Positions 19,832-34,938 of a DNA stretch of 35,019 bases are shown in pieces. The stretch's first letter is position 1. The number at the start of each line of letters is the position of its first letter. This DNA is from Sphaerotilus sp. (lineage in GTDB: Bacteria > Pseudomonadota > Gammaproteobacteria > Burkholderiales > Burkholderiaceae_C), in contig JAAFKB010000041.1 in NCBI GenBank assembly GCA_013299055.1, positions 1-35,019 of the forward strand. The letters are read 5' to 3'. The notes beneath the pieces were generated by a model. It did no database searches. It was not told the origin of the DNA and saw only the letters and a list, made by a program, of their open reading frames with translations. The position numbers and the translations under genes were made by a program.

Positions 19832-19877
19832 GGCGGGATCACTTTCACGGTCTCACGGTCTCTCGCGGTGGAGAGGG

Positions 19878-20600: not shown

Positions 20601-20948
20601 ACAAAGTCTTCCCAATTGATGCGAGCTTGGTCCGAGGGGCAACGCTTTCATGCATTATTCCCGGCTTGTTTCTAGGCCAGATGAAGTGCCATCGGATTTC
20701 ATGGTTCTTCGTGCAATTGACTTCATTTTTGGTGCATTTCAAACGATAAGTCATCATGTGCTGGGAAATCTGCCAGTACTGGATCGTTTTTTCGGCTTCC
20801 GGGTGCATGACCCCTTGCCTGGGTAGGGGTGATGTCGGTGTTCTCCCTCGGCTGAAGGGTGTCTTTCTGGGTTAAGGAAGGCCCAAATTGATGCCGATGA
20901 CCGGACATCCGGATCTTGTAAAGTTACAACTTGTAAACACGAAAACCC
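20601..20948. promoter_or_regulatory. Divergent AT-richer control region of the exopolysaccharide locus
   Basis: These 348 bases contain no gene and are visibly richer in A and T than the flanking coding DNA. Several symmetric elements are present: CCAGTACTGG (20773-20782); ACCCCT/AGGGGT stem (20810-20830), which competes with GGGT/ACCC (20801-20813); CCGGA-CA-TCCGG (20901-20912); TTGTAA-AG-TTACAA (20916-20929), followed by a third TTGTAA at 20931-20936. On the minus strand AATAAT near 20660 may be a -10 box for the sugar transferase. No clear Shine-Dalgarno precedes epsF. I found no match to known cyclic-di-GMP riboswitch cores or to sigma54 spacing. Confidence 0.6.
20810..20830 (+). promoter_or_regulatory. 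Possible competing leader hairpins
   Basis: ACCCCT (20810-20815) can pair with AGGGGT (20825-20830), or its ACCC part can pair with the upstream GGGT (20801-20804). The two stems are mutually exclusive, a layout seen in attenuators. This only matters if transcription of the plus-strand operon starts upstream of 20800, which I cannot show. Confidence 0.25.
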
Positions 20949-22400
20949 ATGTCACTTGCCCGTTTCCTGTTGACGCTGAAGGCGCGCTGGGCCACCGCCG
21001 CACTGGTGCTGGCCACCGTGCTGGCGCTGACCGCGCTGGTCAGCACCCTGCTGCCCAAGCAGTACACCGCCACGTCGATGGTGCTGGTGGACATCAAGTC
21101 GGCGGATCCGCTGGCGGTGTCGCCGCAGCAGCAGGCCGGACAGGCGGCGGCCTACATGGCCACCCAGGTCGATCTGCTGCAGAGCGAGCGGGTGGCCCGC
21201 GCCGTGATGGCCGCCACCAGCATGACACGCGACCCGAACGACGCCGCCCACCAGCTCTGGCGCAGCAAGACCAACGGGCTCGGCGAGTTCGAGGAATGGC
21301 AGGCCGCGCGCATGAAGAAGAAGCTGGAGGTGCGGCCGACCAAGGAGTCCGGGGTCATCTCCATCGCCTATACCGCCGACAGCCGCGAGGCAGCCGCGCA
21401 GATCGCCAATGCCTATGTGCAGGCGTATGTCGACACGAGCCTGGCCCTGCGCGTGGAGCCGGCGCGTACCAGCACCGCCTTCTTCGACGAGCGCGCCACC
21501 CAGCTGCGCACCACGCTGGACGCCGCACAGGCGAAGCTGTCGGAGTTCCAGCGCCAGCATGGCCTGCTGACGATTGGCGGGGCCGAGGAGCGGCTGGACG
21601 TGGAGACGGCGCGGCTGAACGAGCTGTCGTCGCAGCTGGTGGCGCTGCAGGCGCAGACCGGCGAGTCCGGCAGCCGCCAGTCGCAGGCCCGCGCCAACCC
21701 CGAGAAGTCGCCCGAGGTCATCAACCACCCGGTGGTCAGCACGCTCTCGGCCGAGGTGCTGCGCCAGGAGACGCGCCTGAACGAGATGAGCGCCCGCCTG
21801 GGCGACCGCCATCCGTCGATCGTCGAGCAGCGCGCCGCGGTGGCGCAGCTGCGCAGCCAGCTCGCCTCGGAGTCGCGCCGCGTGGCCGCCAGCCTGGGCG
21901 TGAACGACACCGTCAACCAGCAGCGCCTGGAGCAGGTCCGCACCGCCCTGGAGGCCCAGCGCACCAAGGTGCTCGACCTCACGACGCGCCGCGACGAGGC
22001 CCGCGTGCTGCAGAAGGACGTGCAGAACGCGCAGACCGCCTTCGACGCCGTGACTGGCCGCAGCACGCAGAGCGCCACCGAGAGCCAGGCGCGCATGAGC
22101 AACGTGTCGGTGCTCAAGACCGCCGCACCGCCGGCGCTGGCGTCGTCGCCGCAGATGGAGGTGAACCTCGGCGTGGCGGCGCTGCTGGGCTCCGTGCTGG
22201 CGCTGGCGGTGGTGCTGGTGCAGGAGCAGCGCAACCGCCGCCTGCGCTGCGCCGACGACGTGCCGGAGCTGCTCGACCTGCCGCTGCTGGTCGAGATCCC
22301 GGCCCGCCAGCTCGCCGGCAAGGGCAAGGCTCTGTCGCTGCCGCGGCTCGGACGCAACGCACCCAAGCCGGGTGCGTCCACGGGCCGCCTGCCGGCGTGA
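20949..22400 (+). CDS. epsF: Chain-length determinant protein, EpsF/Wzz type
   Basis: A 483-residue inner-membrane co-polymerase that sets exopolysaccharide chain length. 'MSLARFLLTLKARWATAALVLATVLALTALV' carries the first membrane helix (about 16-36) and is followed by 'LPKQYTATSMVLVDIKSADPLAV', the Wzz-type sequence of EpsF proteins. A long periplasmic coiled-coil region (residues ~170-385, many Gln/Glu/Arg/Leu) ends in a proline-rich 'KTAAPPALASSPQ' before the second helix (about 397-417). The C-terminal cytoplasmic tail (~65 residues, basic) probably contacts the kinase. The kinase gene follows after two bases. The start matches EpsF relatives although the Shine-Dalgarno is poor. First gene of the plus-strand operon. 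Confidence 0.88.
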   Translation: MSLARFLLTLKARWATAALVLATVLALTALVSTLLPKQYTATSMVLVDIKSADPLAVSPQQQAGQAAAYMATQVDLLQSERVARAVMAATSMTRDPNDAAHQLWRSKTNGLGEFEEWQAARMKKKLEVRPTKESGVISIAYTADSREAAAQIANAYVQAYVDTSLALRVEPARTSTAFFDERATQLRTTLDAAQAKLSEFQRQHGLLTIGGAEERLDVETARLNELSSQLVALQAQTGESGSRQSQARANPEKSPEVINHPVVSTLSAEVLRQETRLNEMSARLGDRHPSIVEQRAAVAQLRSQLASESRRVAASLGVNDTVNQQRLEQVRTALEAQRTKVLDLTTRRDEARVLQKDVQNAQTAFDAVTGRSTQSATESQARMSNVSVLKTAAPPALASSPQMEVNLGVAALLGSVLALAVVLVQEQRNRRLRCADDVPELLDLPLLVEIPARQLAGKGKALSLPRLGRNAPKPGASTGRLPA

Positions 22401-22402
22401 CC

Positions 22403-23305
22403 ATGCACATGAAACGCGACTTCGAACTCAGTCGGGTCTCCCCGATGGACGAGGCCGGCTTCACCGTCGAGCCGCAGCACACGCTGAGCCTGGGCGACAT
22501 CCTGCGCCGGCAGTGCCAGCTGGGGGACGCCGAGGTGGCGCGCATCATGGCGCTGCAGGCCGAGCGCGGGCTGCGCTTCGGCGATGCCGCCGTGGCGCTG
22601 CGTCTGGTGCAGCCCAGCGACGTGACGCAGGCGCTGGCGCGGCAGTTCAGCTACGCCTGCACCACCACCGAGGTCGCCCCGCACCTGGCTGAGCTGGTCA
22701 CGGCCGTCGACCCGCAGGGCGAGCGCGCCGAGGTCTACCGCGACCTGCGCGCCCAGATCATGCTGCGCCCCGGCGGTGCGGAGCCGGCCGCATTGGCCGT
22801 GGTCAGCCCGGCGCCAGGCGATGGCCGCACCCACATCGCCGCCAACCTGGCCGTGGCGTTCAGCCAGATGGGCCAGCGCACGGTGCTGGTGGACGCCAAC
22901 CTGCGCGCACCCAGGCTGCACACGCTGTTCGACCTGCCGGCGCGGCCGGGGCTGACCGCCATCCTCGCCGACCGGCAGGTGGCGGGCGAGCTGGACCGCA
23001 TCGACGTGCTGCCCAACCTGCATGTGCTGCAGGTGGGTGCGGCGCCGCCGAATCCGCAGGAACTGGTGCAGCGCGAGACCTTCCGCACCCTGCTGCGCGA
23101 GCTGACGCGCAAGTTCGACCGCGTCATCGTCGACACCCCGGCGGCCCACGGCACGGCCGACGCCCGCGTGATCGCCACCGCCTGCGCCCAGGCGCTGGTC
23201 GTCGGCCGGCGGGACCACAGCACGGCGACCCAGCTGCGCGAACTGGTCGGCGGACTGCGGGCGCAGCGGGTCGATCTGGTCGGCGTGGTCATGAATGTCT
23301 GCTGA
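22403..23305 (+). CDS. epsG: EpsG-type chain-length determinant tyrosine kinase
   Basis: A 300-residue cytoplasmic BY-kinase-like protein that partners EpsF. The N-terminal part holds two 24-residue repeats (29-52 and 58-81) separated by five residues, each with an [S/R]-[L/F]-G start and Gln end, resembling MshEN domains. The kinase domain has Walker A 'SPAPGDGRTH' (135-144; Arg142 where Lys is usual), Walker A' 'VLVDANLR' (161-168) and Walker B 'VIVDTP' (241-246). There is no C-terminal tyrosine cluster; the protein ends VVMNVC. Hence autophosphorylation of the classical type is doubtful, and it may act as an ATP-binding regulator. ATG 22403 follows the epsF stop by two bases; Met at 22409 is an alternative. 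Confidence 0.87.
   Translation: MHMKRDFELSRVSPMDEAGFTVEPQHTLSLGDILRRQCQLGDAEVARIMALQAERGLRFGDAAVALRLVQPSDVTQALARQFSYACTTTEVAPHLAELVTAVDPQGERAEVYRDLRAQIMLRPGGAEPAALAVVSPAPGDGRTHIAANLAVAFSQMGQRTVLVDANLRAPRLHTLFDLPARPGLTAILADRQVAGELDRIDVLPNLHVLQVGAAPPNPQELVQRETFRTLLRELTRKFDRVIVDTPAAHGTADARVIATACAQALVVGRRDHSTATQLRELVGGLRAQRVDLVGVVMNVC
22487..22645 (+). other. MshEN-like tandem 24-5-24 repeat encoded in epsG
   Basis: Codons for residues 29-81. Repeat I begins SLGDILRRQC and ends ALQ; the spacer is AERGL; repeat II begins RFGDAAVALR and ends LARQ. Lengths 24, 5 and 24 are those described for cyclic-di-GMP-binding MshEN domains. Repeat I has Ser in place of the initial Arg. Confidence 0.6.
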
Positions 23306-23314
23306 TGTCCGCTG

Positions 23315-24553
23315 ATGGCCACTGACCGCGCCTCCACCGTGCGCAAGCTGATCGAGCTGGCGATGACCCACGTCGCCACGTTCGCGTTCCCGCTCGTCTT
23401 CGCCGTGATCTGCGGACGCACGCTGGGCATCCACGATTACGGCATCGTCTCGTTCTACGCCGCGCTGGCCGCCTTCCTGGGCATGGTCATCGAGTTCGGT
23501 TTCGACTGGTACGGCATCCGCGAGGTCGCCCGCCACCAGAAGGACGCCGCCAGCGTCCACCGCATCCTGTGGAACATCACGGCCGCCAAGCTGCTGCTGT
23601 GCGCGGGGGTGGTGAGCGTGGCAGGCGGGGCACTGTGGCAGCTGCGGGCGCACGCCGAATGGCCGCTGATGCTCGCCTCCAGCGCCTATCTGGTGGGCTT
23701 TGCCTTCGACGCTGGCTGGTATGTGCGGGCGCTGGAGCAGACGCGGCTGCTGCTGCTCATCACCAGCGGCGTGCGGCTGATCGGCATCGCGGTGCTGCTG
23801 GTGGTGGTGCCCCGGGTGGCGACGATGGAGAGCGCACTCGGCGTCTACGCGCTGGTGTCGCTGCTGACCAGCGGCGTGACCTGGTTCTTCCTGGCGCGCC
23901 ACGGGCTGGTGCGGCGCGCGCCCATCGAGCGGCGCTACATCGGCGAGCTGCTGCGCCAGTCGTCGGCCATCGTGTTCGGCAACGTCAACGGTGCCATGCT
24001 CACCAATGGCGGCATCGCGCTGCTCGGAATGCACGCCGACCCCGCCACCGTCGGCGCCGCCAACCTCGCGCTGCGGGTGCGCATGGCGGGGCAGGCGGTG
24101 ATGCTGCCGGTGCAGCAGCTCGGCTTCGTGCGCATCTCCGGACTGGCCTCGCGCACGCCGCTGGCGGCCATGGCGCTGGGCAGCCGGCTGATGGTGGTGA
24201 CACTGGCCATCGGCACGGTGATCAGCGCGGTCTGCATGGCCGCGGCGCCGTGGATCGCGGCGTATGTCTTCAAGACCGAGGTGCCGATCGCCGTGCTGCT
24301 GATCCTGCTGCTGTCGTTCAGCATCCCGGTGCAGGGGATGGCCAACCTGTTCGGCATGCAGTCGCTGATCGCGCTGGGCCAGGAGCGGCGCTACGCCCTG
24401 ATCCAGCTCGCCGCGACGCTGGCCTTCTGCGCGTGCCTGTTCCTGCTCGACCGCCAGAGCGCCTACGGCTGGGCGATCCTGGGAGCCGAGACGACGGTGA
24501 TGCTGCTGTCGGCGGGGGTGTTGATCCGCTTGCGTGGGGAGATGGCGGCATGA
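23315..24553 (+). CDS. Wzx-type flippase (polysaccharide transport protein)
   Basis: A 412-residue integral membrane protein with about twelve hydrophobic segments, of the MATE/MVF-like polysaccharide flippase superfamily. The N-terminus 'LIELAMTHVATFAFPLVFAVICGRTLGIHDYGIVSFYAALAAFLGMVIEFGFDWYGIREVARHQ' has the family's usual 'lG...yG...f..a.......i..GF...a.re.a' layout. It is expected to move undecaprenyl-PP-linked repeat units across the inner membrane. It starts nine bases after epsG, and its stop overlaps the start of the next gene as ATGA, so it is co-translated with the putative polymerase. Confidence 0.85.
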   Translation: MATDRASTVRKLIELAMTHVATFAFPLVFAVICGRTLGIHDYGIVSFYAALAAFLGMVIEFGFDWYGIREVARHQKDAASVHRILWNITAAKLLLCAGVVSVAGGALWQLRAHAEWPLMLASSAYLVGFAFDAGWYVRALEQTRLLLLITSGVRLIGIAVLLVVVPRVATMESALGVYALVSLLTSGVTWFFLARHGLVRRAPIERRYIGELLRQSSAIVFGNVNGAMLTNGGIALLGMHADPATVGAANLALRVRMAGQAVMLPVQQLGFVRISGLASRTPLAAMALGSRLMVVTLAIGTVISAVCMAAAPWIAAYVFKTEVPIAVLLILLLSFSIPVQGMANLFGMQSLIALGQERRYALIQLAATLAFCACLFLLDRQSAYGWAILGAETTVMLLSAGVLIRLRGEMAA

Positions 24554-25860
24554 CGAACACCCGGTCGACAGGCGCGGCCATGCCCATGCCGTGGTGGTGC
24601 GCTCCGGCGGGGATCGCCGTCGGTTTCCTGCTGCCACTGATGGTGCTGATCTCCTACGCAGGGGATCTGCCGCACCCGGCGCTGACCATCCGTGGTGTGG
24701 CCGTGCTCGATGCGCACTATCTGCAGCTCGGCGGGATGATGATCCTGGCCATCGCGCTGGCGGGCTGGTTCGGGGCGCAGCTGCAGCTCGGCCCCGTGCC
24801 TGTGGTGCGCGACCGGCGGGGCTGGGACCGCGCCGCGCTGGGCATCGGTGGCCTGGCCACGTTCGCGTTTGTCATCTGGTTCCGCGACTTCGTGTTCAAC
24901 CCGGTGCTGTTGTTCCAGACGCTGACCGGCGAGTTCAAGCCCGACCGCAACACCATCGCCCTGACCCCGGGCCTGACCTCGCTGGCCAACATGGGGCCGG
25001 TGTTCTTCTCCGTCTACGCGTTCCGGCTCCTCGACAAGGGCGAGCAGGCGCTGCCCCGCGCGATGCACGTCCTGTTCGTGGTGCTCGGCCTGTTCACGCT
25101 GTTCCGGGTCTACGTCTGGACCGAGCGGCTGGCGCTGATCGAGCTGCTGGTGCCCTTCGGACTGACCTTCGGGCGCTGGACCTCGACCCGTGCCGGCACC
25201 GGCTGGGCCCTGACCCGCACGGTCGGCCCGTATGCGGCGATCCCGATGGTGGTCCTGCTCTTCGGTGCCAGCGAGTACTTCCGGTCGTGGTCGTCCGACA
25301 CCTACCAGGGCAAGATGGACTTCTGGGAATTCGCCATCGGCCGCTTCGCGAGCTACTACTACACCTCGCTGAACAACGGTGCCGGCCTGCTGGCCAACAT
25401 GCCCTGGCCGACCTGGACCTTCGAGTTCACGCTGGAGTGGCTGCACCGGGCGCCCTTCGGGGCCGGCAAGCCGTTTTCGGACGCGGTGGGCTACACGGGA
25501 CCGCAGTTCGACTGGTACCTCGCCACCTACCAGGACGAGGAATTCAACAGCCCGTCCGGCATCTTCGGGCCGCTGTCCGATCTGGGGCTCTACGGCGGCC
25601 TGGGCTACATGCTGGGCATCGGGCTGGTGAGCGGGCTGTGCTTCCGGGCCTACCGCGAGGCGCGGCTGGTCGGGGTGCTGTTCTACCCGATCTTCTTCAT
25701 CACCTTCATGGAGATCTACCGCTACCCCTACCTCGGCGTGCCGAGAGCGTTCACCTGGACGCTGGGCATCGGGCTGGCGCTGCTGCTGGCCGCCACGGTG
25801 AAACCGATTCCTGCGCCACGGCGATCCGTCGGCGACCCCTCCGCGCACCCGGCGAGCTGA
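24550..25860 (+). CDS. Putative Wzy-type exopolysaccharide polymerase
   Basis: A 436-residue multispanning membrane protein with ~10-12 hydrophobic helices and a large loop around 245-345 ('EYFRSWSSDTYQGKMDFWEFAIGRFASYYYTSLNNGAGLL', 'GYTGPQFDWYLATYQDEEFNSPSGIFGPLSDLGLYGGLGYM'). The RFASYYYTSLNNG and E-F-N-S-P-SGIFGPL-D-G patterns occur in O-antigen polymerase-like oligosaccharide repeat-unit polymerases. The position between flippase and glycosyltransferases supports a Wzy role. Sequence identity among Wzy proteins is low, so this is by topology and context. Begins at ATGA overlapping the flippase stop; the next gene begins three bases after its own stop. Confidence 0.75.
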   Translation: MTNTRSTGAAMPMPWWCAPAGIAVGFLLPLMVLISYAGDLPHPALTIRGVAVLDAHYLQLGGMMILAIALAGWFGAQLQLGPVPVVRDRRGWDRAALGIGGLATFAFVIWFRDFVFNPVLLFQTLTGEFKPDRNTIALTPGLTSLANMGPVFFSVYAFRLLDKGEQALPRAMHVLFVVLGLFTLFRVYVWTERLALIELLVPFGLTFGRWTSTRAGTGWALTRTVGPYAAIPMVVLLFGASEYFRSWSSDTYQGKMDFWEFAIGRFASYYYTSLNNGAGLLANMPWPTWTFEFTLEWLHRAPFGAGKPFSDAVGYTGPQFDWYLATYQDEEFNSPSGIFGPLSDLGLYGGLGYMLGIGLVSGLCFRAYREARLVGVLFYPIFFITFMEIYRYPYLGVPRAFTWTLGIGLALLLAATVKPIPAPRRSVGDPSAHPAS

Positions 25861-25863
25861 TCC

Positions 25864-26946
25864 ATGCACGATCCCACCACCCGCCCCGCTCCTCGGCTGA
25901 GCATCGTCATCGACAACTACAACTACGCGCAGTTCGTGGCCCGTGCCATCGACTCTGCCCTGGAGCAGACGGTGTCCGACCTGGTCGAGGTGATCGTGGT
26001 CGACGACGGCTCGACCGACGGCTCGATGGCCGTGATCGCGCCTTACGCCGACCGCGTGCGCATCATCGACAAGCTCAACGGCGGGCAGGCGTCGGCCTAC
26101 AACGCCGGCTTCGCAGTGGCGCAGGGCGCGCTGGTGCTGTTCCTGGACGCCGACGACTGGCTCTACCCGGACGCGGCCGCCGAGATCATCGCGGCCTGGA
26201 CACCGGGCACGTCCAAGGTGCAGTTCCTGCTGGACATGGTCGATGCGGGTGGCGATCCGCTGCACCGCCAGGTGCCACGCGCGCTGCACGACACCGAGGC
26301 GCCCCGGCTCCTGCGGGCGTGCGGCGCCTACGGCTCTCCCCCTGGCTCCGGCAACGCCTATGACCGCCACTACCTGCGCCAGATCCTGCCCCTGGACACG
26401 GCGGCCTGGCGCACGGGCGCGGATTCGGTGCCGATCCTGCTGGCCCCCGCCTACGGACAGATCCGTTCCCTGCGGCGTGCCCTGGGGGCCTACCGCATCC
26501 ACCGCGCCCCTGACGACGACGCCCTGGTCTTCAACAACTACTCCGGCAACCTGCTGTCCGAGCTGCAGCGCATCACCGCGGGCAAGCACGCCGTGGCCGC
26601 GGGGCTGGACCGGCTGGGCCTGCCGCACGCCGAGCCGCTCGGGCTGGCTCCGTGGGAGGCGCGCACGGTGGTGATGTGCGCCCGCTTCGGTGGACCGCAG
26701 GCGCAGGCGGCGATGCAGCCGTCCCCTGGTGCGGTGGTCCGCCAGGCGCTGCGCTCGGTGTGCCGCTGGCCGCTCATCTCCTGGACCCGCAAGCTGCAGA
26801 TGGTGGTGTGGATGGTGGGGGTGATGGCCCTGCCGCTGCCGCTGGCGCACCGGCTGGCCCGGCTGCACCGCCGCTCGGCCGGTCAGCCCGACCACTCGGC
26901 CCACGCCGCCGCCGCCCGGCTCGCGGCCCTGAAGGCCCACGTCTGA
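25864..26946 (+). CDS. Glycosyltransferase family 2
   Basis: A 360-residue GT-A fold inverting transferase. 'LSIVIDNYNYAQFVARAIDSALEQ' begins the nucleotide-binding fold; 'VIVVDDGSTDGS' with Asp47-Asp48 and the metal-binding 'LFLDADDWL' (DADD at 95-98) are the family motifs, and 'NGGQASAYNAGFAVAQG' lies between them. The usual 'P.YN' start is 'DNYN' here. The acceptor-side half is less conserved, and a hydrophobic helix near 305-325 (VVWMVGVMALPLPLA) may tether it to the membrane. It presumably adds one sugar of the repeat unit; donor unknown. Operon member, 19 bases before the next gene. Confidence 0.9.
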   Translation: MHDPTTRPAPRLSIVIDNYNYAQFVARAIDSALEQTVSDLVEVIVVDDGSTDGSMAVIAPYADRVRIIDKLNGGQASAYNAGFAVAQGALVLFLDADDWLYPDAAAEIIAAWTPGTSKVQFLLDMVDAGGDPLHRQVPRALHDTEAPRLLRACGAYGSPPGSGNAYDRHYLRQILPLDTAAWRTGADSVPILLAPAYGQIRSLRRALGAYRIHRAPDDDALVFNNYSGNLLSELQRITAGKHAVAAGLDRLGLPHAEPLGLAPWEARTVVMCARFGGPQAQAAMQPSPGAVVRQALRSVCRWPLISWTRKLQMVVWMVGVMALPLPLAHRLARLHRRSAGQPDHSAHAAAARLAALKAHV

Positions 26947-28037: not shown

Positions 28038-30233
28038 ATGCCCATGCAAGCCGCCCCCCCGCCCGCTCCTTTCCGTGTTGCCGTGGTGCATGAATGGCTG
28101 GTCAACCACGCCGGCAGCGAGAAAGTCGTCGAGGAGATCCTGAAGATCTATCCACAGGCGGACCTGTTCGCCGTGGTCGATTTCCTGAAGCCCCACGAGC
28201 GCGGCTTCCTGCAAGGCAAGGTGGCCAAGACGACGTTCGTGCAGCGCCTGCCCGGTGCCGAGAAACGCTTCCGCCACTACCTGCCGCTGATGCCGCTGGC
28301 GATGGAGCAGCACGATCTCTCGGGCTACGACCTGATCCTGTCGTCGAGCCACGCCGTCGCCAAAGGTGTGCTGACCGGGCCGGACCAGCTCCACGTCTGC
28401 TACATCCATTCGCCGATCCGCTATGCCTGGGACATGCAGCACCAGTACCTGAAGGAGTCGGGCATGGCCACCGGCGTCAAGGGCACGGTCGCCAAGCTGC
28501 TGCTGCACTACATGCGGCTGTGGGACACCCGCACCGCCGCCGGGGTCGACCAGTTCCTCGCCAACTCGGCCTTCATCGCCCGCCGGGTGCGCAAGGTCTA
28601 CCGGCGCGACGCGGCCGTGATCCACCCCCCCGTGGACGTGGGGCGTTTTGCCCTGCGCACGGACAAGGAGGACTTCTACCTCACCGCCTCGCGCATGGTG
28701 CCGTACAAGCGCATGCCGATGATCGTCGAGGCGTTCTCGCGCATGCCGGACAAGAAGCTCATCGTCATCGGCGACGGGCCGGAGATGGACAAGGTGCGCG
28801 CCGCCGCCGGGCCGAACGTGTCGGTGCTGGGCTTCCTCGGGGACGCGGCGCTGGTGGACCACATGCAGCGCGCCAAGGCGTTTGTCTTCGCCGCCGAGGA
28901 AGACTTCGGCATCACGCCCGTCGAGGCACAAGCCTGCGGCACCCCGGTGATCGCCTTCGGGCGCGGGGGCTCGCTGGAGACGGTGCGCGGTCGCGGCCAC
29001 CCGGCGCAGCGCACGGGCGTGTTCTTCCAGGAGCAGACGCCCGAAGCGGTCATCGCCGCGGTCGAAGACTTCGAGGCGCTGCCGCAGCCGATCCGCCCCC
29101 AGACCTGCCGCGCGCACGCCGAGCAGTTCGCGCCGGCCCTGTTCCGCCAGCGTTTCCAGGCGGCGGTCGAGCAGGCGTGGGCGCGCTTCCATGCCGAGGA
29201 GGCGCCGCTGCCGCTGCCGGTGCTGTCCGAGGTGTCGGCGCCTGCTCCCGTTCCAGTGCCTGTCCCTGCGCCAGTCCCGGCTGCCGTTTCCATTCCTGCT
29301 TTCGTGCCGGCTCCCCCGGCCACGCCCGCCATGTCATCCCAGGCCGCCGCTGCCCGCCCCGATCTTTCCTTCGACCTGCCGGCCCCGAACGCCGGCCCGC
29401 CCGCCGTGCTGCGCCCGATCGGCGAGATCATCCGCGCCAAGCGCCCGCTGTCGGACGGCGACATCGCGCACATCCTGCTGGTGCAGCGCCGCATGAAGCT
29501 GCGCTTCGGCGAAGCGGCGGTGGCGCTGGATCTTGTGACGCAGGCCGACGTGCTGTGGGCGTTGTCGCAGCAGTTCAACTACCCGTATTCGCTCGATGGC
29601 CGGGGCCTGAGCGGCGCGGATCTGGTGGTGGCGGTGGAGCCGTATGGCGCGCAAGCCGAAGCCTTCCGCGACCTGCGCAGCAAGATCATGGCCAACGACG
29701 AGGCGCTGGGTCGCCAGCCGCTGGCCGTGGTCAGCCCCGACAGCGGGGACGGCCGCACCTACGTGGCCGCGAACCTGGCCGTGACCTTCAGCCAGCTCGG
29801 CGAGCGCACGGTGCTGGTGGACGGCAACCTGCGCGACCCTGGCATCCACAAGCTCTTCGGACTGAAAGAGCGCGCCAGCCTGAGCGACCTGCTCAACGGC
29901 CGCCGCCCGGCCAAGCCCTTCGACCGCTCGGCGGACCTGCCGGGCCTGTTCATCATGCAGGTCGGCGCACCCCCGCCGAACCCGCTGGAGCTGCTGCAGC
30001 AGCCGATGTTCGGCATCCTGCTGCGCGAGCTGCAGCGCGAGTTCGACCGCGTGATCGTGGACACGCCCCCCGCGCGCCACACGGCCGACGCTCGGGTCAT
30101 CGCCGCGACCTGTCGCCAGTCGGTGCTGGTCGGCCGCCATGGCAAGACCGAGGCGCGCACGATGAACCTGCTGGTGGACCGCCTGCGGCGCACGCAGGCG
30201 ACGATCGCCGGTGTCGTCCTCAATGACCACTGA
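28038..30233 (+). CDS. Fusion: GT4 glycosyltransferase + EpsG-like tyrosine-kinase domain
   Basis: A 731-residue cytoplasmic protein joining two exopolysaccharide functions. Residues ~12-380 are a complete WbaZ-like GT4 ('VAVVHEWLVNHAGSEKVVEEI', 'CYIHSPIRYAWDMQHQYL', E288-x7-E296 in 'EEDFGITPVEAQACGTPV'). Residues ~388-459 are a Pro/Ala/Val linker (PVPVPVPAPVP). Residues 460-512 are two 24-residue MshEN-like repeats separated by five residues. Residues ~560-731 are an EpsG-like P-loop domain: Walker A 'SPDSGDGRTY' (566-575), A' 'VLVDGNLRD', Walker B 'VIVDTPP'. Like EpsG, it has Arg for the Walker Lys and no tyrosine tail. One continuous frame, no stop or frameshift. It is the last plus-strand gene of the operon and overlaps the convergent gene by 14 bp. 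Confidence 0.92.
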   Translation: MPMQAAPPPAPFRVAVVHEWLVNHAGSEKVVEEILKIYPQADLFAVVDFLKPHERGFLQGKVAKTTFVQRLPGAEKRFRHYLPLMPLAMEQHDLSGYDLILSSSHAVAKGVLTGPDQLHVCYIHSPIRYAWDMQHQYLKESGMATGVKGTVAKLLLHYMRLWDTRTAAGVDQFLANSAFIARRVRKVYRRDAAVIHPPVDVGRFALRTDKEDFYLTASRMVPYKRMPMIVEAFSRMPDKKLIVIGDGPEMDKVRAAAGPNVSVLGFLGDAALVDHMQRAKAFVFAAEEDFGITPVEAQACGTPVIAFGRGGSLETVRGRGHPAQRTGVFFQEQTPEAVIAAVEDFEALPQPIRPQTCRAHAEQFAPALFRQRFQAAVEQAWARFHAEEAPLPLPVLSEVSAPAPVPVPVPAPVPAAVSIPAFVPAPPATPAMSSQAAAARPDLSFDLPAPNAGPPAVLRPIGEIIRAKRPLSDGDIAHILLVQRRMKLRFGEAAVALDLVTQADVLWALSQQFNYPYSLDGRGLSGADLVVAVEPYGAQAEAFRDLRSKIMANDEALGRQPLAVVSPDSGDGRTYVAANLAVTFSQLGERTVLVDGNLRDPGIHKLFGLKERASLSDLLNGRRPAKPFDRSADLPGLFIMQVGAPPPNPLELLQQPMFGILLRELQREFDRVIVDTPPARHTADARVIAATCRQSVLVGRHGKTEARTMNLLVDRLRRTQATIAGVVLNDH
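29415..29573 (+). other. MshEN-like tandem 24-5-24 repeat encoded in the fusion gene
   Basis: Codons for residues 460-512. Repeat I begins PIGEIIRAKR and ends LLVQ; the spacer is RRMKL; repeat II begins RFGEAAVALD and ends LSQQ. The spacing is the same as in the stand-alone EpsG, so both kinases carry the domain. Repeat I has Pro for the usual Arg. Confidence 0.6.
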
Positions 30234-31317
30234 AGCGGCGGCAATCGAGCTGCGCGCCAGGGGTTGTCTGCACGAGGCGGCCGGCGCGGTGGTTCAGCGT
30301 GCCGTGGCGGCTGTGCTCCACCGTGTTGCCGCGCAGCAGGATGTCCCCGAGACCGGCTGCACCGTCCGGCACCGCGTGGGTGTGGAGTTCGATGGCGGCA
30401 TGGCCGGTCGGCGCCGCGGTGACGCCCGTGCGTGCCGCAGGGGTCTGGATCTCGCGCAGCCGGTTGTCCTCGATGCGCACGTCGTGGACGCCGTGGGTGC
30501 GCCAGTTGCCCTCCTGCGCGATGAGCACGCCGGCCGCCCGCGCGATGCCCGTCACCGTGTTGCCGCGCAGGGTGATGTGCGCGCCGCCCACGACCGTCAG
30601 CCCGCGCCCCCAGCGGGCGCCGGACACGGTGTTGTCGGCGACGAGGAGGTCGCGCACCACCGGCTCGTTGTCGTAGGACACGATGGAGATGAGGTCATCG
30701 CCGGTGTCCTGCACCTGGTTGGCGAGCACACGGCCGTGGCGGCTGCCGCCGGTAGTGTGGATGCCGTCGGCCAGCGTGTTGCGCACCGTGTTGCCGGCAA
30801 CGGTGAAGTCGGTCGCGCCGTAGACCAGCATGCCGACCGATCCGGCGCCATCGACCGTCACGCCGCGCACCACATTGCCCCGCTGCGGGGTCTGGCCTTC
30901 GCGGTAGACGCTGATGCGCGCCTGCGCTGGTTCGCTGCGGCGCTGGTCGGGTGTGGCGGTGAGCGTCAGGCCGTAGAGGCGCACGCCGTCGGCGCGCAGG
31001 CCGAGCGTGTGGTCACGCGGGTCGGTCGCTTCCAGCGTGGCGCCCGGCCCCCACAGCGTCACGCCCGGCACGCTGACGAGCACGCTGCGCTGCTGTCGGT
31101 AGCGCCCCGGCGGAAACACCAGCCAGCCGCCCGGCCTGAGCGCCTTCAGTGCGCGGTCGATGGCCGCGTCGTCGGCGAGGTCGTCGTCGGCCACCGCCCC
31201 GAAGTCCGTCACCCGCAAGGCACCGACCGGCACCGCGGGCCATGGCGCGAGCACGGCGCAAGCCGCCACCGATCCCCAGAACCCCCCCAAGGCCACGCAT
31301 CCCACGGAGACCCGCAT
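30220..31317 (-). CDS. Exported right-handed beta-helix protein (pectate lyase-like)
   Basis: About 365 residues. A signal-like N-terminus (SVGCVALGGFWGSVAACAVLA) is followed by 'LRVTDFGAVADDDLADDAAIDRALKAL..GGWLVFPPGRY', the start of pectate-lyase-3/GH28-like proteins, then beta-helix coils with repeated N-T-V turns ('VAGNTVRNTLADGIHT', 'VADNTVSGARWGRGL', 'LRGNTVTGIARAAG', 'IEDNRLREI', 'LRGNTVEHS'). Such proteins are polysaccharide lyases, hydrolases, epimerases or phage-like depolymerases; catalytic residues cannot be assigned. It is convergent to the operon (14-bp overlap with the fusion gene) and could trim or modify the polymer outside the cytoplasm. The ATG at 31317 shares CATG with the divergent aminotransferase start; 31353 is an alternative. 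Confidence 0.8.
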   Translation of the reverse strand: MRVSVGCVALGGFWGSVAACAVLAPWPAVPVGALRVTDFGAVADDDLADDAAIDRALKALRPGGWLVFPPGRYRQQRSVLVSVPGVTLWGPGATLEATDPRDHTLGLRADGVRLYGLTLTATPDQRRSEPAQARISVYREGQTPQRGNVVRGVTVDGAGSVGMLVYGATDFTVAGNTVRNTLADGIHTTGGSRHGRVLANQVQDTGDDLISIVSYDNEPVVRDLLVADNTVSGARWGRGLTVVGGAHITLRGNTVTGIARAAGVLIAQEGNWRTHGVHDVRIEDNRLREIQTPAARTGVTAAPTGHAAIELHTHAVPDGAAGLGDILLRGNTVEHSRHGTLNHRAGRLVQTTPGAQLDCRRFSGH

Positions 31318-32572
31318 GAGTGCTGACCACCCTGAGCACCCTGACCATCCCATCTACGTCACCCAGCCCTTTCTGCCGCCGCTGGCGGAGTTCATGCCCT
31401 ACCTGGAAAAGATCTGGGACCGCAAGCTCGTCACCAATGGCGGCCCCTTCCACCAGCAGCTCGAAGCCGAACTGGCCGCCTACCTGGGCGTGCAGCACCT
31501 GGCGCTGTTCACCAACGGCACGCTCGGCCTGCTCACCGCGCTGCAGGCCCTGCGCGTGACTGGCGAGGTCATCACCACGCCGTACTCGTTTGCCGCCACC
31601 GCGCACTCGGTGCTGTGGAACGGCCTGAAGCCTGTCTTTGCCGATATCGACCCGGACACCTGCAATCTGGATCCCGACAGCATCGAAGCCGCCATCACGC
31701 CGCAGACCACCGCCATCATGCCGGTGCATTGCTACGGTCGGCCCTGCGATGTCGAGCGCATCCAGAAGATCGCCGACACCTACGGCCTGAAGGTCATCTA
31801 CGACGCGGCGCATGCTTTCGGGGTGCAGTACAAGGGCAAGAGCCTGCTGAACTGGGGTGACCTGTCGGTGCTGAGCTTCCACGCCACCAAGGTGTATTCC
31901 ACCATCGAAGGCGGCGCCATCATCTGCCCGGACGCCAAGACCAAGCAGCGCATCGACTACCTCAAGAACTTCGGCATCGCCGACGAGGTCACGGTGATGG
32001 CGGCGGGCATCAACGGCAAGATGAACGAGGTGCAGGCCGCCTTCGGGCTGATGCAGTTGCGCCATGTGGACGACTGCATCGCCCGCCGCGGCGAGATCGC
32101 CCGGCTCTACACGCAGCAGCTCGCTGGCCTGCTGGGCATCCGCGTGCCGGACGACGCGCCGCACACGGTGCCGAACCACTCGTACTTTCCCATCTTCATC
32201 GGCCCGGACCACCCGCTCAGCCGCGACGCCGTGTACGACCGCCTGCGCCAGCGCGGCATCCATGCCCGCCGCTACTTCTACCCGCTGCTCAGCGACATGC
32301 CGATGTACCGCGGTCTGCCTTCTGCGGCCAAGGACCACCTGCCGGTCGCGCACGAGATCGCCGCGCAGGTGCTGTGCCTGCCGATCTACCCGGCGCTGTC
32401 GGATGCGGACGTGATGCGGGTGGTGGACATTCTCCGCAGCGCGCTGGTGTACGAAGGGTGGCCGGCGCAGACGGTGGCGCAGGATGGGGTGGCGGTGGCT
32501 GTGTCGGCCCCAGTGGGGGAGCCGACTGGTCGGTTGATCGAGCGGCGCTTGGGGTCTGAGCGGCGGGTCTGA
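31316..32572 (+). CDS. DegT/DnrJ/EryC1/StrS sugar aminotransferase
   Basis: A 418-residue PLP-dependent enzyme that aminates a nucleotide keto-sugar, supplying an amino sugar for the polysaccharide. Motifs: 'LALFTNGTLGLLTALQAL', 'EVITTPYSFAATAHSVLWNGLKPVFADIDPDTCNLDP', 'VHCYGRPCDV', 'VIYDAAHAFGV' (Asp163 pairs with the PLP nitrogen) and 'LSFHATKVYSTIEGGAI' with the Schiff-base Lys192. The C-terminal 35 residues after 'LRSALVYEG' are low complexity and probably disordered. ATG 31316 is preceded by GGAG (31305-31308), six bases away. The start codon overlaps that of the divergent beta-helix gene, so its promoter must lie within that gene or further upstream. Confidence 0.92.
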   Translation: MSADHPEHPDHPIYVTQPFLPPLAEFMPYLEKIWDRKLVTNGGPFHQQLEAELAAYLGVQHLALFTNGTLGLLTALQALRVTGEVITTPYSFAATAHSVLWNGLKPVFADIDPDTCNLDPDSIEAAITPQTTAIMPVHCYGRPCDVERIQKIADTYGLKVIYDAAHAFGVQYKGKSLLNWGDLSVLSFHATKVYSTIEGGAIICPDAKTKQRIDYLKNFGIADEVTVMAAGINGKMNEVQAAFGLMQLRHVDDCIARRGEIARLYTQQLAGLLGIRVPDDAPHTVPNHSYFPIFIGPDHPLSRDAVYDRLRQRGIHARRYFYPLLSDMPMYRGLPSAAKDHLPVAHEIAAQVLCLPIYPALSDADVMRVVDILRSALVYEGWPAQTVAQDGVAVAVSAPVGEPTGRLIERRLGSERRV

Positions 32573-32599: not shown

Positions 32600-33868
32600 T
32601 TAGTCGCCATCTCCGAATCGTGCCGCTGGCACCACCAGCACCAGCTCCGCCTCGTCCACCATCCGGTACACCGGTCGCTGCCCGGAAAGCCGCTCGCTGC
32701 TGTCCAGGATCACCTGCACGCCCTCGCCGCGCTTGTCCATCATCGTGCTGCGGCCAGTGAACACCTGGTCCTCCTCGGCGACCACACACTTGGCGAGCAG
32801 ACTGGTCAGCGCCTCGTTGCGGGCGGCCTGACGGTAGGGCAGGCTCTCCACCGTCATCGTGTTCGGGATCGCGCCGGGCGAGTACAGCTCCAGCCGGTCG
32901 GCGAACACGCGCAGGCGGATCTTGGCGCCGTGGATCGCGTAGTCGCGGTGCGCCACGGCGTTCACCACCGCCTCGAACACGGCGGTCAGGTCGAACTGCG
33001 GCAAGTCCTGGCGGCCCATGTGCTTGCGGGCGGCCACGCGCATGTTCTTCATGACGAAGTGGCAGGCGGCGAGCACCTGCTGGTCGAGCGGGCCGGTGAT
33101 GTCCTTGGCGTCGATCTGGTAGTAGAGATGGTCGCCGGGCGGGACCACCTCGGTCCCTCGGTACGCCACCGCCTGGATGAAGGCGTTGGGCAGCCAGCGG
33201 CGCGGATCGGCGCTCGCCATCAGCACGCCGGTCACGGTCGGGCGCAGCGTGCCGTCGGCGTCGGGGCGGGCCATCGCCAGCTTGTCGAGCAGCACCTCGC
33301 GGCTGTCCTTCTGGCGCAGGCTGGCAAAGCGTTGCCACAGGTCGGGGCGCAAGTCGTCCAGCGTGGCGCCGGGCACGGGCTGTTCGTCGAAGCGGATGAT
33401 GCGGGCCTGGCTGCGCTGCTGGAACAGGCGGGCGAGGTAGTCGGGCGCCATTTCCCGTTTGGCGCTGCCGACGCGGTGCAGGTAGCCGCCGGGGCTGCGG
33501 TGGACGAACAGGCTGCGAGGCACGTCCACGCGCACGACGGGCTGTGCCATGCCGCTGGGGTCGGGCAGCGTGAGTCGCTCGATGACAGGGGTCAGCGGTG
33601 GCGTCACTCCGGTCAGGCAGAGTTCGCGCACGAAGTCCTCGACAGCATCGAGCCGTTCGACCGGGAGGCCCTGCACCTGGCGCCCGTCGTCCACACCGAG
33701 CACGCAGACACCGCCCCGGCTGTTGGCAAAGGCCGCCAGTTCGTCGGCCAGCGAATCCCGGTGCGGTGCGCTCACGCGGTGGCCGGCGAAACGGACTTCC
33801 TTCAATTCGAGGAAAGTGTCCTCGCCGAGTCGGATCTTGGCGAGCAGGTCTGGCGGGTTGTCGAACAT
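32600..33868 (-). CDS. AlbA_2 / ATP-binding putative transcriptional regulator
   Basis: A 422-residue cytoplasmic protein. Residues ~10-130 are an AlbA_2 (Schlafen-like) nucleic-acid-binding domain: 'EDTFLELKEVRF', 'SLADELAAFANSRGGVCVLGVDDGRQVQGL'. 'GYLHRVGSAKREMAPDYLARLF' follows, and the C-terminal part has a GHKL-type ATPase-like motif 'AVFEAVVNAVAHRDYAIHG...DRLELYSPGAIP' and 'GEGVQVILDSS'. Family members are poorly characterised; some accompany toxin-antitoxin or phage-defence genes. The start at ATG 33868 matches the family N-terminus; upstream sequence in frame (to 33982) is unrelated. It lies 110 bp downstream of the RES/Xre pair and converges on the aminotransferase gene. The winged-helix C-terminus seen in some relatives is absent. 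Confidence 0.85.
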   Translation of the reverse strand: MFDNPPDLLAKIRLGEDTFLELKEVRFAGHRVSAPHRDSLADELAAFANSRGGVCVLGVDDGRQVQGLPVERLDAVEDFVRELCLTGVTPPLTPVIERLTLPDPSGMAQPVVRVDVPRSLFVHRSPGGYLHRVGSAKREMAPDYLARLFQQRSQARIIRFDEQPVPGATLDDLRPDLWQRFASLRQKDSREVLLDKLAMARPDADGTLRPTVTGVLMASADPRRWLPNAFIQAVAYRGTEVVPPGDHLYYQIDAKDITGPLDQQVLAACHFVMKNMRVAARKHMGRQDLPQFDLTAVFEAVVNAVAHRDYAIHGAKIRLRVFADRLELYSPGAIPNTMTVESLPYRQAARNEALTSLLAKCVVAEEDQVFTGRSTMMDKRGEGVQVILDSSERLSGQRPVYRMVDEAELVLVVPAARFGDGD

Positions 33869-33910
33869 GGCGCGCCGTTGGCTGAGTCGTGGGGTGAGTG
33901 GGCTTGATGG

Positions 33911-33968
33911 CCAAGTTTGCCAAGTGCTCCGGCCTTTCGGGAAACTGCTCGGAAAACTACTTGGAAAC
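33911..33968. promoter_or_regulatory. Cluster of short repeats upstream of the AlbA_2 gene
   Basis: GGAAAC-type units begin at 33940, 33951 and 33963 (11 and 12 bp apart, about one helical turn), and CCAAGT occurs at 33911 and 33920 with its inverse ACTTGG at 33959. They fill the gap between the RES gene and the AlbA_2 gene and could be operator sites for a regulator of the latter. Confidence 0.35.
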
Positions 33969-33978
33969 AGCGAGCGAA

Positions 33979-34434
33979 TCAAGGCGAGCGCAACAGCCGC
34001 GCATCAAACGGGTACCGTGCCACCGACACCACTACCGCCTGTTGGGCCTGCGGGTGCAGCGGGTTGAACAGGCGGTTGAAGCTGCGCCCGACCACGGCCG
34101 ACGGCACGCGCAGCAGCAAGCTGCGCCTTTGCGCGAGCCACTCGTCGCCACAGCGGCGGGTGGCCTCGGCGTCGGCGTGCCAGTCCGGTGTGTCCGGCAA
34201 CACGGCGTCCTCGCTGCACACGTCATCCGGCAAGGCGACTTCCATCAACTGGTACTGCGCCGGCAATTCGCCAGGATGCGACACCTGCACATGGACCAGC
34301 ACCTCCAGCAGCGCCGCCGCCGGACTTTCGGCCAGGTAGACGATCGGGCGCCCTCGGTGGTGCCAGCGGCCGGGGTGCAGCACGCCGCCGGTGCCCGACA
34401 GGTCGGCGTAGTTGCTGATGCGCCAGAGGATCAC
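33979..34434 (-). CDS. RES-domain toxin (MbcT-like)
   Basis: A 151-residue toxin of the Xre-RES type II class; characterised members deplete NAD+. The core 'LWRISNYADLSGTGGVLHPGRWHHRGRPIVYLAESPAAALLEVLVHV' carries the conserved Arg of 'WRIS', the 'G-RW...G-.-YL-E-' block and the Glu of 'LLEVL'. The start GTG at 34434 gives the normal family N-terminus (ILWRIS), seven bases after the antitoxin stop; the open frame to 34584 only runs through the antitoxin gene. Antitoxin-first order and tight spacing are typical of the class. Confidence 0.88.
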   Translation of the reverse strand: MILWRISNYADLSGTGGVLHPGRWHHRGRPIVYLAESPAAALLEVLVHVQVSHPGELPAQYQLMEVALPDDVCSEDAVLPDTPDWHADAEATRRCGDEWLAQRRSLLLRVPSAVVGRSFNRLFNPLHPQAQQAVVVSVARYPFDARLLRSP

Positions 34435-34441
34435 GCCGGGC

Positions 34442-34873
34442 TCAGGCGAAGTAGCCCTGGTCGATTTCGTGCAGCCACGCCTGCACGGCCTCGAAGCCGA
34501 GGGTGTCGGCGGCGAAATCCATCGGCGCGGCGCCACCCAGGCGCTCTTTCGGGCTGTGCAGCCATGCCTGCGCGCGCACCGCATCGCCGAAGACCAGTTC
34601 CGCCAGCGTCTGCACGCGCACCAGCCGGTACAGCCCGTCGAACTCGTCGCGGCTCAGGCGGGCCTCGGCCTTGCGGCGGATCCAGGTGCGGCGCGGCACG
34701 ATGCGGTAGACATCGGCGGGCGACAGCAGGTTCTGGCCGGTGAGGCTGTGCATCAGGGCGGTGCCGAGCTGCTCCCGATCAGCACGCGCCAGGGCCATTT
34801 CGCTCGCGCCGGACGGCAGGCCCAGCGCCTGACCCAAGGTGCGGCTGAGGGTCGATTCGAGGTTGGCTTGCAT
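34442..34873 (-). CDS. Xre/MbcA/ParS-type antitoxin (DUF2384)
   Basis: A 143-residue antitoxin paired with the RES toxin. The central part 'GQNLLSPADVYRIVPRRTWIRRKAEARLSRDEFDGLYRLVRV' is the Xre-like DNA-binding region, and the C-terminus 'LAELVFGDAVRAQAWLHSPKERLGGAAPMDFAADTLGFEAVQAWLHEIDQGYFA' is the DUF2384 toxin-binding region. ATG 34873 agrees with family length; the longer frame to 34933 runs through the promoter. There is no visible Shine-Dalgarno. It likely represses its own promoter through the inverted repeat at 34917-34932. Confidence 0.88.
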   Translation of the reverse strand: MQANLESTLSRTLGQALGLPSGASEMALARADREQLGTALMHSLTGQNLLSPADVYRIVPRRTWIRRKAEARLSRDEFDGLYRLVRVQTLAELVFGDAVRAQAWLHSPKERLGGAAPMDFAADTLGFEAVQAWLHEIDQGYFA

Positions 34874-34902
34874 GCGGTGGATTCGTGGGGGGAGTGAGCC
34901 AG

Positions 34903-34931
34903 ATTCTAGGGTGTGGTGCGCCAGTTGGCAC
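34903..34931 (-). promoter_or_regulatory. Candidate promoter and operator of the RES/Xre pair
   Basis: On the minus strand GTGCCA (34931-34926) and TAGAAT (34908-34903; five of six consensus bases) are 17 bases apart. An imperfect inverted repeat TGCGCCA-GT-TGGCACA (34917-34932) covers the -35 box, a fitting operator for the antitoxin. Confidence 0.5.
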
Positions 34932-34938
34932 ACATCGG

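What the first reader, a model, noticed from the sequence alone, without database searches (positions are those of the whole stretch)
28038..30233. Glycosyltransferase fused to an EpsG-like tyrosine kinase in one continuous frame
The sequence shows a full-length GT4 with its E-x7-E motif, a ~70-residue Pro/Ala/Val linker, and a complete EpsG-like P-loop domain, uninterrupted over 731 residues. BY-kinases are normally separate or fused to Wzz co-polymerases; fusion to a cytoplasmic repeat-unit glycosyltransferase would place assembly and length control on one chain. A stand-alone EpsG (22403-23305) is retained in the same operon, so the fusion is a paralogue rather than a replacement. The inference that kinase state or ligand binding gates the glycosyltransferase is untested.
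Basis: partly seen in the sequence, partly recalled or inferred. Interest (0 to 1): 0.8.

Follow-up and report, generated by a model that had tools for sequence, protein, structure and literature searches.

The report
Glycosyltransferase fused to kinase-like co-polymerase partner
In some sheath-forming Sphaerotilus-type bacteria, an enzyme that adds a sugar to a surface polysaccharide is joined by a floppy linker to a kinase-like protein that has lost the usual catalytic residue, so it probably ties sugar-chain building to the export machine rather than acting as a kinase.

Summary
The fusion is real. ORF 28038-30233 encodes 731 residues: a WbaZ-like GT4 with its motif intact, a disordered Pro/Ala/Val linker, an MshEN-like helical domain and a BY-kinase (EpsG) fold. 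The same uninterrupted architecture occurs in 6 of 13 held genomes of the genus (Sphaerotilus/Leptothrix), with in-frame linkers of 73-136 residues and both halves under purifying selection. No such fusion appeared outside the genus in the genomes sampled. The kinase label is doubtful: Walker A has Arg for Lys, Walker A' has D-x-N for D-x-D, and there is no tyrosine tail. The stand-alone EpsG of the same operon also has the Arg. The ring-forming EX2RX2R motif is kept. Two sister genomes have one unfused EpsG at the same operon position and lack a close relative of this GT, so the fused half looks like the operon's old EpsG rather than a spare copy (duplication order not settled). Best reading: a pseudokinase-type scaffold that docks a repeat-unit GT onto the EpsF co-polymerase without phosphorylation, comparable in mode to EcpK/HfsB. 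Docking, ring formation and effect on the GT are inferred, not shown.

The parts
28038..30233 (+). GT4-EpsG fusion gene, 731 aa (an in-frame ATG at 28044 is an alternative start, like the M-Q starts chosen for G004 and G008)
28038..29192 (+). WbaZ-like GT4 half, residues 1-385, E288-x7-E296, R219 and K224 kept
   Evidence: Pfam; PDB best GT match 2f9f 'first mannosyl transferase (wbaZ-1)'; invariants; AF2 block means mostly above 80, 55-73 at about 121-160
29193..29405 (+). Pro/Ala/Val linker, predicted disordered
   Evidence: pLDDT under 50 at 389-458; lengths 73-136 aa in six genomes, all in frame
29406..29582 (+). MshEN-like four-helix domain, residues 457-515, degenerate c-di-GMP motif I
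   Evidence: profile A6 vs MshE 5htl E 1e-7; NF053729 22.1 bits under cut-off 38; helices
29583..30230 (+). BY-kinase-like (EpsG) fold, residues 516-731
   Evidence: TIGR03029/TIGR01007; CapA1B1 4jlv by sequence and by fold E 3.3e-16
29658..29678 (+). EX2RX2R motif E541-R544-R547 (octamer interface motif of CapB)
   Evidence: 68 of 68 EpsG rows; motif role PMC3795738 passages
29733..29759 (+). Walker A, SPDSGDGRT, Lys replaced by Arg573
29820..29834 (+). Walker A' D595-G-N597-L-R599 (second Asp is Asn)
20949..22400 (+). EpsF/Wzz-type co-polymerase (PCP-2), presumed docking partner
   Evidence: TIGR03017 424.7 bits, above cut-off 422.75; tail segment LPLLVEIP in 8 of 8 operons looked at, fused and sister
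22403..23305 (+). stand-alone EpsG1, also GDGR in Walker A
23315..24553 (+). Wzx-type flippase
   Evidence: PF01943; synteny
24550..25860 (+). hydrophobic 436-aa protein, Wzy polymerase candidate by place and make-up only
   Evidence: frame by codon-position GC and homologues in 5 fusion and 2 sister operons; no Pfam match
25864..26946 (+). GT2 glycosyltransferase
   Evidence: PF00535
26966..28033 (+). GT4b glycosyltransferase
   Evidence: PF00534

Best explanation
The protein is a repeat-unit glycosyltransferase built onto a scaffold. Shown here: a GT4 with its conserved residues; a linker predicted to be disordered; an EpsG fold that keeps the ring-interface motif but in all six fusions lacks the Walker A Lys, the second Walker A' Asp and a tyrosine tail; linkage to one EpsF, a Wzx-type flippase and further GTs; conservation of the fusion in one clade. 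Inferred: the EpsG half docks on the cytoplasmic tail of EpsF (alone or mixed with EpsG1) as BY-kinases and pseudokinases do on their PCP-2 partners, so that several GT domains hang around the co-polymerase base. A sugar (by resemblance to WbaZ possibly mannose) is then added next to flippase and polymerase, coupling repeat-unit assembly with export without tyrosine phosphorylation. Nucleotide binding may remain as a structural or slow switch. The polymer may be sheath or slime polysaccharide; nothing here tests that.
For: Fusion in 6 of 13 genus genomes, one frame each. Linkers vary 73-136 aa and stay in frame. dN/dS over seven pairs: GT half 0.05-0.33, EpsG half 0.015-0.34, linker 0.21-1.09. 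Walker A: 47 K, 19 R, 1 S, 1 C of 68 EpsG rows; R in 14 of 14 rows of the clade holding fusions, EpsG1 and sisters. EX2RX2R residues in 68 of 68. C-terminal tail 0-4 aa in 68 of 68. Fold match to CapA1B1 and Wzc octamer subunits. Sister operons: one unfused EpsG in the same last position. Precedents seen in passages: pseudokinase scaffold EcpK/HfsB (PMC12004946); CapAB phosphorylation raises CapM GT activity 4-fold (PMC6441080); the Lys-lacking mutant CapA1B2 K55M crystallises as an ADP-bound octamer (PMC3795738). In 3 of 20 long-frame EpsGs examined, EpsG is fused to EpsF itself.
Against: No interaction, oligomer or activity was measured or modelled. The Y-cluster supplies about half of the CapAB octamer interface and is absent here. 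CapB1, once proposed as a pseudokinase, was later reported active, and Lys-to-Arg is milder than the Lys-to-Met of those precedents, so weak kinase or ATPase activity is possible. The fusion scores above the cut-off of TIGR01007, the tyrosine autokinase subfamily. Loss of the Lys is not special to this operon: at least 5 changes on the EpsG tree, and 4 of 40 other BY-kinase rows read R; a missing tail is common to the sampled EpsG family, and 12 of 40 other BY-kinase rows have no Tyr in the last 25 residues. EpsG1 could do all the EpsF work. The full-length model is poor over the EpsG half, so domain arrangement is unknown.
Confidence: 0.5

Rival explanations
1. Active kinase reading: the EpsG half still binds and hydrolyses ATP with Arg in place of Lys and phosphorylates the attached GT or its neighbours, switching sugar transfer on and off.
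For: Walker B D675, Walker A Gly/Thr and A' D595/R599 are kept; TIGR01007 above cut-off; both halves are under purifying selection; CapAB stimulates the GT CapM by phosphorylation in trans, and CapB1 was active although called a pseudokinase (PMC6441080 passages).
Against: Lys573 and Asp597 missing in 6 of 6 fusions; no Tyr cluster, three fusions having a single last Tyr; EpsG1 has Arg as well. No substrate tyrosine was looked for.
Confidence: 0.15
2. Ligand-gated GT: the MshEN-like half binds c-di-GMP (or another nucleotide) and the EpsG half relays this to the GT or to EpsF.
For: The half is a real MshEN_N relative (5htl E 1e-7); motif II Arg, Gly and Gln and motif I Gln are kept; MshEN domains occur fused to GTs (PMC5013675 passages); a c-di-GMP-controlled exopolysaccharide synthase of E. 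coli is known (PMC8669469, listing only).
Against: Motif I Arg position is Pro, and both turn Gly are Arg and Asp in the fusion; none of the 57 EpsG rows with a letter at that Arg position has Arg there, though an Arg often stands one residue before it. NF053729 scores 22.1 against cut-off 38. Arg9 and Gln32 matter for binding in MshE.
Confidence: 0.15
3. Passive tether: the fusion only fixes a 1:1 ratio or co-localises a GT with the export complex; the EpsG half does nothing else because EpsG1 does the co-polymerase work.
For: EpsG1 is kept next to EpsF in 6 of 6 fusion genomes; the linker is long and predicted disordered.
Against: Constraint on the EpsG half is about as strong as on the GT; sisters have the orthologue of the fused half as the only EpsG of this operon.
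Confidence: 0.15
4. Artefact or split translation: a frameshift error hides a stop, or the EpsG half is made separately from an internal start.
For: An in-frame ATG lies at 29331 in the linker, with like ones in G004 and G008; in-frame GTG codons occur there too.
Against: Six genomes agree on one frame; the three other fusions lack that Met; no purine-rich site is seen before it in the window; the MKRD-x2-LS leader of 5 of 7 stand-alone copies looked at (window, L031, L032, L034, L035; not L028, L030) is absent from the fusion.
Confidence: 0.05

Closest known systems
EpsG, TIGR03029 (kinase-like partner of EpsF in EPS operons)
   Same: Same MshEN-like plus BY-kinase-like domain order, EpsF in the operon
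   Different: Fused to a GT4; under the equivalog cut-off; Lys-to-Arg and Asp-to-Asn changes (each also met in some unfused EpsGs)
EcpK (Myxococcus xanthus) and HfsB (Caulobacter) BY pseudokinases
   Same: BY-kinase fold without full catalytic residues or Tyr tail, beside a PCP-2 lacking a kinase domain
   Different: Those are stand-alone; EcpK lacks the consensus Walker motifs, here much of them remains; here a GT is attached
CapA/CapB and Wzc
   Same: Same fold and EX2RX2R motif; CapAB regulates the GT CapM in trans
   Different: Autokinases with Lys and Tyr cluster; joined, if at all, to the transmembrane co-polymerase, not to a GT
WbaZ-like GT4 glycosyltransferases
   Same: GT half, 54-71% identity to 39 unfused GTs in A5
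   Different: Those have no EpsG-type domain in the same frame
MshEN-GT fusions (for example NfrB of E. coli, name recalled)
   Same: GT and an MshEN-type domain in one protein
   Different: c-di-GMP-controlled synthases (listing); here motif I is degenerate and a BY-kinase fold follows

Membership tests
BY-kinase (active tyrosine kinase) | Walker A with catalytic Lys, GK[S/T] | tested here: not met
   GDGRT in 6 of 6 fusions; definition from PMC12220298 passages
BY-kinase (active tyrosine kinase) | Walker A' DXDXR | tested here: not met
   DGNLR in 6 of 6 fusions
BY-kinase (active tyrosine kinase) | Walker B DX2P | tested here: met
   D675-T-P-P
BY-kinase (active tyrosine kinase) | C-terminal tyrosine cluster | tested here: not met
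   Window ORF ends VVLNDH; tail 0-4 aa in 68 of 68 EpsG rows, against 19-59 aa in 31 of 40 other BY-kinase rows
BY-kinase (active tyrosine kinase) | TIGR01007 autokinase subfamily score | tested here: met
   125.8 bits vs cut-off 108.05
BY-kinase (active tyrosine kinase) | Autophosphorylation on tyrosine | not testable with these tools
   needs protein
EpsG equivalog TIGR03029 | Score above 313.8 bits | tested here: not met
   245.8 bits; EpsG1 256.6 bits
BY pseudokinase scaffold (EcpK/HfsB type) | BY-kinase fold lacking catalytic residues and Tyr tail | tested here: inconclusive
   fold, lost Lys/Asp and missing tail fit, but Walker motifs are only partly lost and inactivity is unproven
BY pseudokinase scaffold (EcpK/HfsB type) | PCP-2 partner without its own kinase domain | tested here: met
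   EpsF 483 aa, TIGR03017
BY pseudokinase scaffold (EcpK/HfsB type) | Direct binding to the PCP-2 tail | not testable with these tools
   two-hybrid or pull-down needed
MshEN c-di-GMP receptor | Two RLGxx...Q 24-residue motifs, 5-residue spacer | tested here: inconclusive
   sequence relative, motif II Arg, Gly and Gln kept, motif I Arg position and both turn Gly lost
GT4, WbaZ-like | GT4 domain with E-x7-E | tested here: met
GT4, WbaZ-like | Mannosyl transfer to a lipid-linked acceptor | not testable with these tools
   enzyme assay needed

The most novel reading that the evidence does not exclude
A phosphorylation-independent assembly in which a ring of kinase-dead EpsG domains, locked by loss of the Walker Lys and tyrosine tail, carries an array of repeat-unit glycosyltransferases under the EpsF co-polymerase, making sugar addition, flipping and polymerisation one machine in sheath-forming bacteria.
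Probability: 0.25. Interest if true: 0.75.

Novelty: new variant of a known kind. Interest (0 to 1): 0.52.

Why it matters
How cytoplasmic repeat-unit glycosyltransferases are coordinated with Wzx/Wzy polymerisation is, to my knowledge, poorly known. A natural covalent link between a GT and the co-polymerase partner gives a directly testable handle, in cultured strains (S. natans, S. sulfidivorans), and bears on whether BY-kinase folds work mainly as scaffolds. Genes of sheath formation in this group are stated to be not well understood (PMC13386937 passage). In my searches of open papers (20, 15, 7 and 2 papers listed of 86, 87, 7 and 2 that matched, judged by title and start of abstract) I found no description of a GT fused to a BY-kinase domain; a main BY-kinase review was not held.

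Tried and rejected
Sequencing-error explanation: rejected by five further genomes in frame. Internal start at 29331: like Met in 3 of 6 fusions only, no purine-rich site in the window. Widespread fusion: of the 80 loci returned (of 162 relatives; the other 82 were not returned), only 4, all of the Sphaerotilus group, have both domains in one ORF; (399 family genomes) 4 spanning matches, all in the genus, with the weakest rows cut from the listing; (399 order and 369 class genomes, partly overlapping samples) only the window itself spans both halves at E <= 1e-120. Fusions of EpsG with other kinds of GT outside this sampling are not excluded.

Twenty EpsG hits with long open frames (chosen by hand) were checked: in 17 the codon-position GC of the upstream part shows another frame is coding, 3 are EpsF-EpsG fusions, none looked like a GT fusion.

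A motif tally by text pattern failed because the pattern was too strict; one search replaced it with an alignment count. Rows in that count: 68 distinct EpsG-like hits, and 40 distinct other BY-kinases as control, out of 146 ORFs with a kinase hit; the rest were duplicates or partial. The sample leans towards relatives of the fusion. In one search I used a wrong frame (24534) for the gene between Wzx and GT2; one search corrected it to 24550-25860 and the synteny held. Alignment A3 was dropped because kinase-only rows seemed misplaced (13-20% identity). Full-length AF2 was good only for the GT half; the EpsG half was taken from a separate model.

Duplication order is unsettled: the tree puts fusions with the sisters (100/96) but holding fusions and EpsG1 together is not rejected (p 0.13); the tree tool warned of long branches, the EpsG1 stem among them, and the plain LG+G4 model was used.

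Full report
OBSERVATION. The ORF 28038-30233 is open for 731 codons. Pfam and NCBIfam place a GT4 in residues about 56-352 and an EpsG-type domain in 461-730. The best solved-structure matches by sequence are CapA1B1/CapAB and Wzc for 523-730, and 'first mannosyl transferase (wbaZ-1)' 2f9f for 198-318. The GT motif E288-x7-E296 and residues R219 and K224 are invariant over 44 aligned rows.

CONSERVATION. The window lies in G000, one of 13 held genomes of its genus. Six of 13 carry GT and EpsG domain in one open frame: G000, G001, G004, G005, G008 and G010. Linkers of 73, 116, 136, 102, 89 and 93 residues (G000, G004, G008, G001, G010, G005) all keep frame. Nei-Gojobori dN/dS over seven pairs is 0.05-0.33 in the GT half, 0.015-0.34 in the EpsG half and 0.21-1.09 in the linker. 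This is a crude method on GC-rich genes, but it suggests that neither half is decaying. AlphaFold2 gives the linker pLDDT below 50 at 389-458 and the EpsG half a mean of 85 in a separate model, whose best Foldseek match is CapA1B1 (E 3.3e-16).

DISTRIBUTION. Beyond the genus no spanning match was found in the genomes sampled from family (399), order (399) and class (369) (thresholds and cut listings as told under Tried and rejected), nor among the 80 loci returned by the scan of genome contigs except four of the Sphaerotilus group. Unfused relatives of the GT are widespread, 54-71% identical in A5. In 11 of the 14 Cohnella and Saccharibacillus loci a BY-kinase ORF ends 0.5-0.9 kb upstream of this GT on the same strand.

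EVOLUTION. Synteny: in 6 of 6 fusion genomes the order is EpsF - EpsG1 - Wzx - hydrophobic polymerase candidate - GT2 - GT4b - fusion. In the sister genomes G011 and G012 it is EpsF - Wzx - polymerase candidate - GT2 - GT4b - EpsG, with no EpsG beside EpsF and no match to the GT half at E <= 1e-50 in the genome. The tree of 68 EpsG rows puts the six fusions with these two sisters (100/96) and the six EpsG1 next to them (14 rows, 100/99). So the fused half is most likely the operon's old EpsG with a GT joined to its front, and EpsG1 the other copy. The order of duplication is not settled (AU p 0.13). In G003 the same kind of GT and an EpsG are separate genes of one stretch.

KINASE OR NOT. Over 68 EpsG rows the Walker A Lys is K in 47, R in 19, S in 1, C in 1; all 14 rows of the operon's clade have R. 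Walker A' second Asp is N in 20 of 68, including 6 of 6 fusions. The tree needs at least 5 changes between Lys and not-Lys, so loss recurs elsewhere in the family. The residues of the EX2RX2R ring motif are E, R and R in 68 of 68. The ORFs end 0-4 residues after the domain in 68 of 68; 49 have no Tyr, 18 one and 1 two in the last 25 residues, against none in 12 of 40 other BY-kinases and two or more in 28 of 40. As control, the 40 other BY-kinases read K in 35, R in 4, 1 not covered. By the definitions quoted in PMC12220298 (passages) the fusion fails two of three Walker motifs; against that, it scores above the cut-off of the autokinase model TIGR01007. PMC3795738 (passages) reports that the Lys-lacking mutant CapA1B2 K55M forms an octamer with bound ADP, and that half of the interface rests on EX2RX2R and half on the Y-cluster. 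PMC12004946 (passages) describes EcpK and HfsB as pseudokinases that act as scaffolds for PCP-2 proteins. A caution: CapB1 had been called a pseudokinase and was then found active (PMC6441080 passages).

MshEN-LIKE HALF. A profile of this stretch finds MshE (5htl) at E 1e-7 and PilF/PilB, so EpsG carries an MshEN_N relative. In the fusion the motif I Arg position is Pro and the two turn glycines are Arg and Asp; motif II Arg, Gly and Gln stay (motif and key residues from PMC5013675 passages). An Arg stands one residue before the motif I position in many rows, the fusion included. c-di-GMP binding is therefore doubtful but not excluded.

MECHANISM. I favour a scaffold: the EpsG half docks on the EpsF tail, whose LPLLVEIP segment is kept in 8 of 8 operons looked at, and holds a GT beside flippase and polymerase. 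A functional tie between BY-kinases and repeat-unit GTs has precedent in trans: CapAB phosphorylates CapM and raises lipid I(cap) synthesis 4-fold (PMC6441080 passages). Here the tie is covalent and the chemistry of phosphorylation seems lost. Docking, ring formation, nucleotide binding, the sugar moved and any role in the sheath are inference.

NOVELTY. GT domains, EpsG folds, pseudokinase partners and MshEN-GT fusions are known; this combination was not met in my paper searches (open papers only, listings). It is a clade-restricted architecture of known parts, as far as sampled.

Noticed in passing
L212, L213, L216 (from G081, G257, G427): EpsF and EpsG joined in one frame, a Wzc-like natural fusion, in three other genomes of the family; shows EpsG fusing to its own partner.
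   Followed up: partly
L034, L035 (G011, G012): Sister operons with a single EpsG at the end of the operon and none beside EpsF.
   Followed up: yes
L152, L153 (G139, G405): In two other genera the WbaZ-like GT and an EpsG-type gene lie tail to tail.
   Followed up: no
30220-31353 (-): Convergent beta-helix (pectate-lyase/epimerase-like) ORF whose end overlaps the end of the fusion gene by 14 bases.
   Followed up: partly
18761-20651 (-): Divergent GT4 gene and a short WbaP-like priming transferase, probably part of the same polysaccharide locus.
   Followed up: partly
5176-9789 (+): 1537-aa protein with DUF7379, CHAT and TPR-S domains, a combination that recalls conflict/defence proteins.
   Followed up: no
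33979-34933 (-): RES-domain toxin (NF049844) next to an ORF with the Xre/MbcA/ParS toxin-binding antitoxin domain: a RES/Xre toxin-antitoxin pair; a Schlafen AlbA_2 protein lies beside it at 32600-33982.
   Followed up: partly
EpsG family: The N-terminal part of EpsG proteins is an MshEN_N relative with a well kept second and a degraded first c-di-GMP motif across the sampled family.
   Followed up: partly
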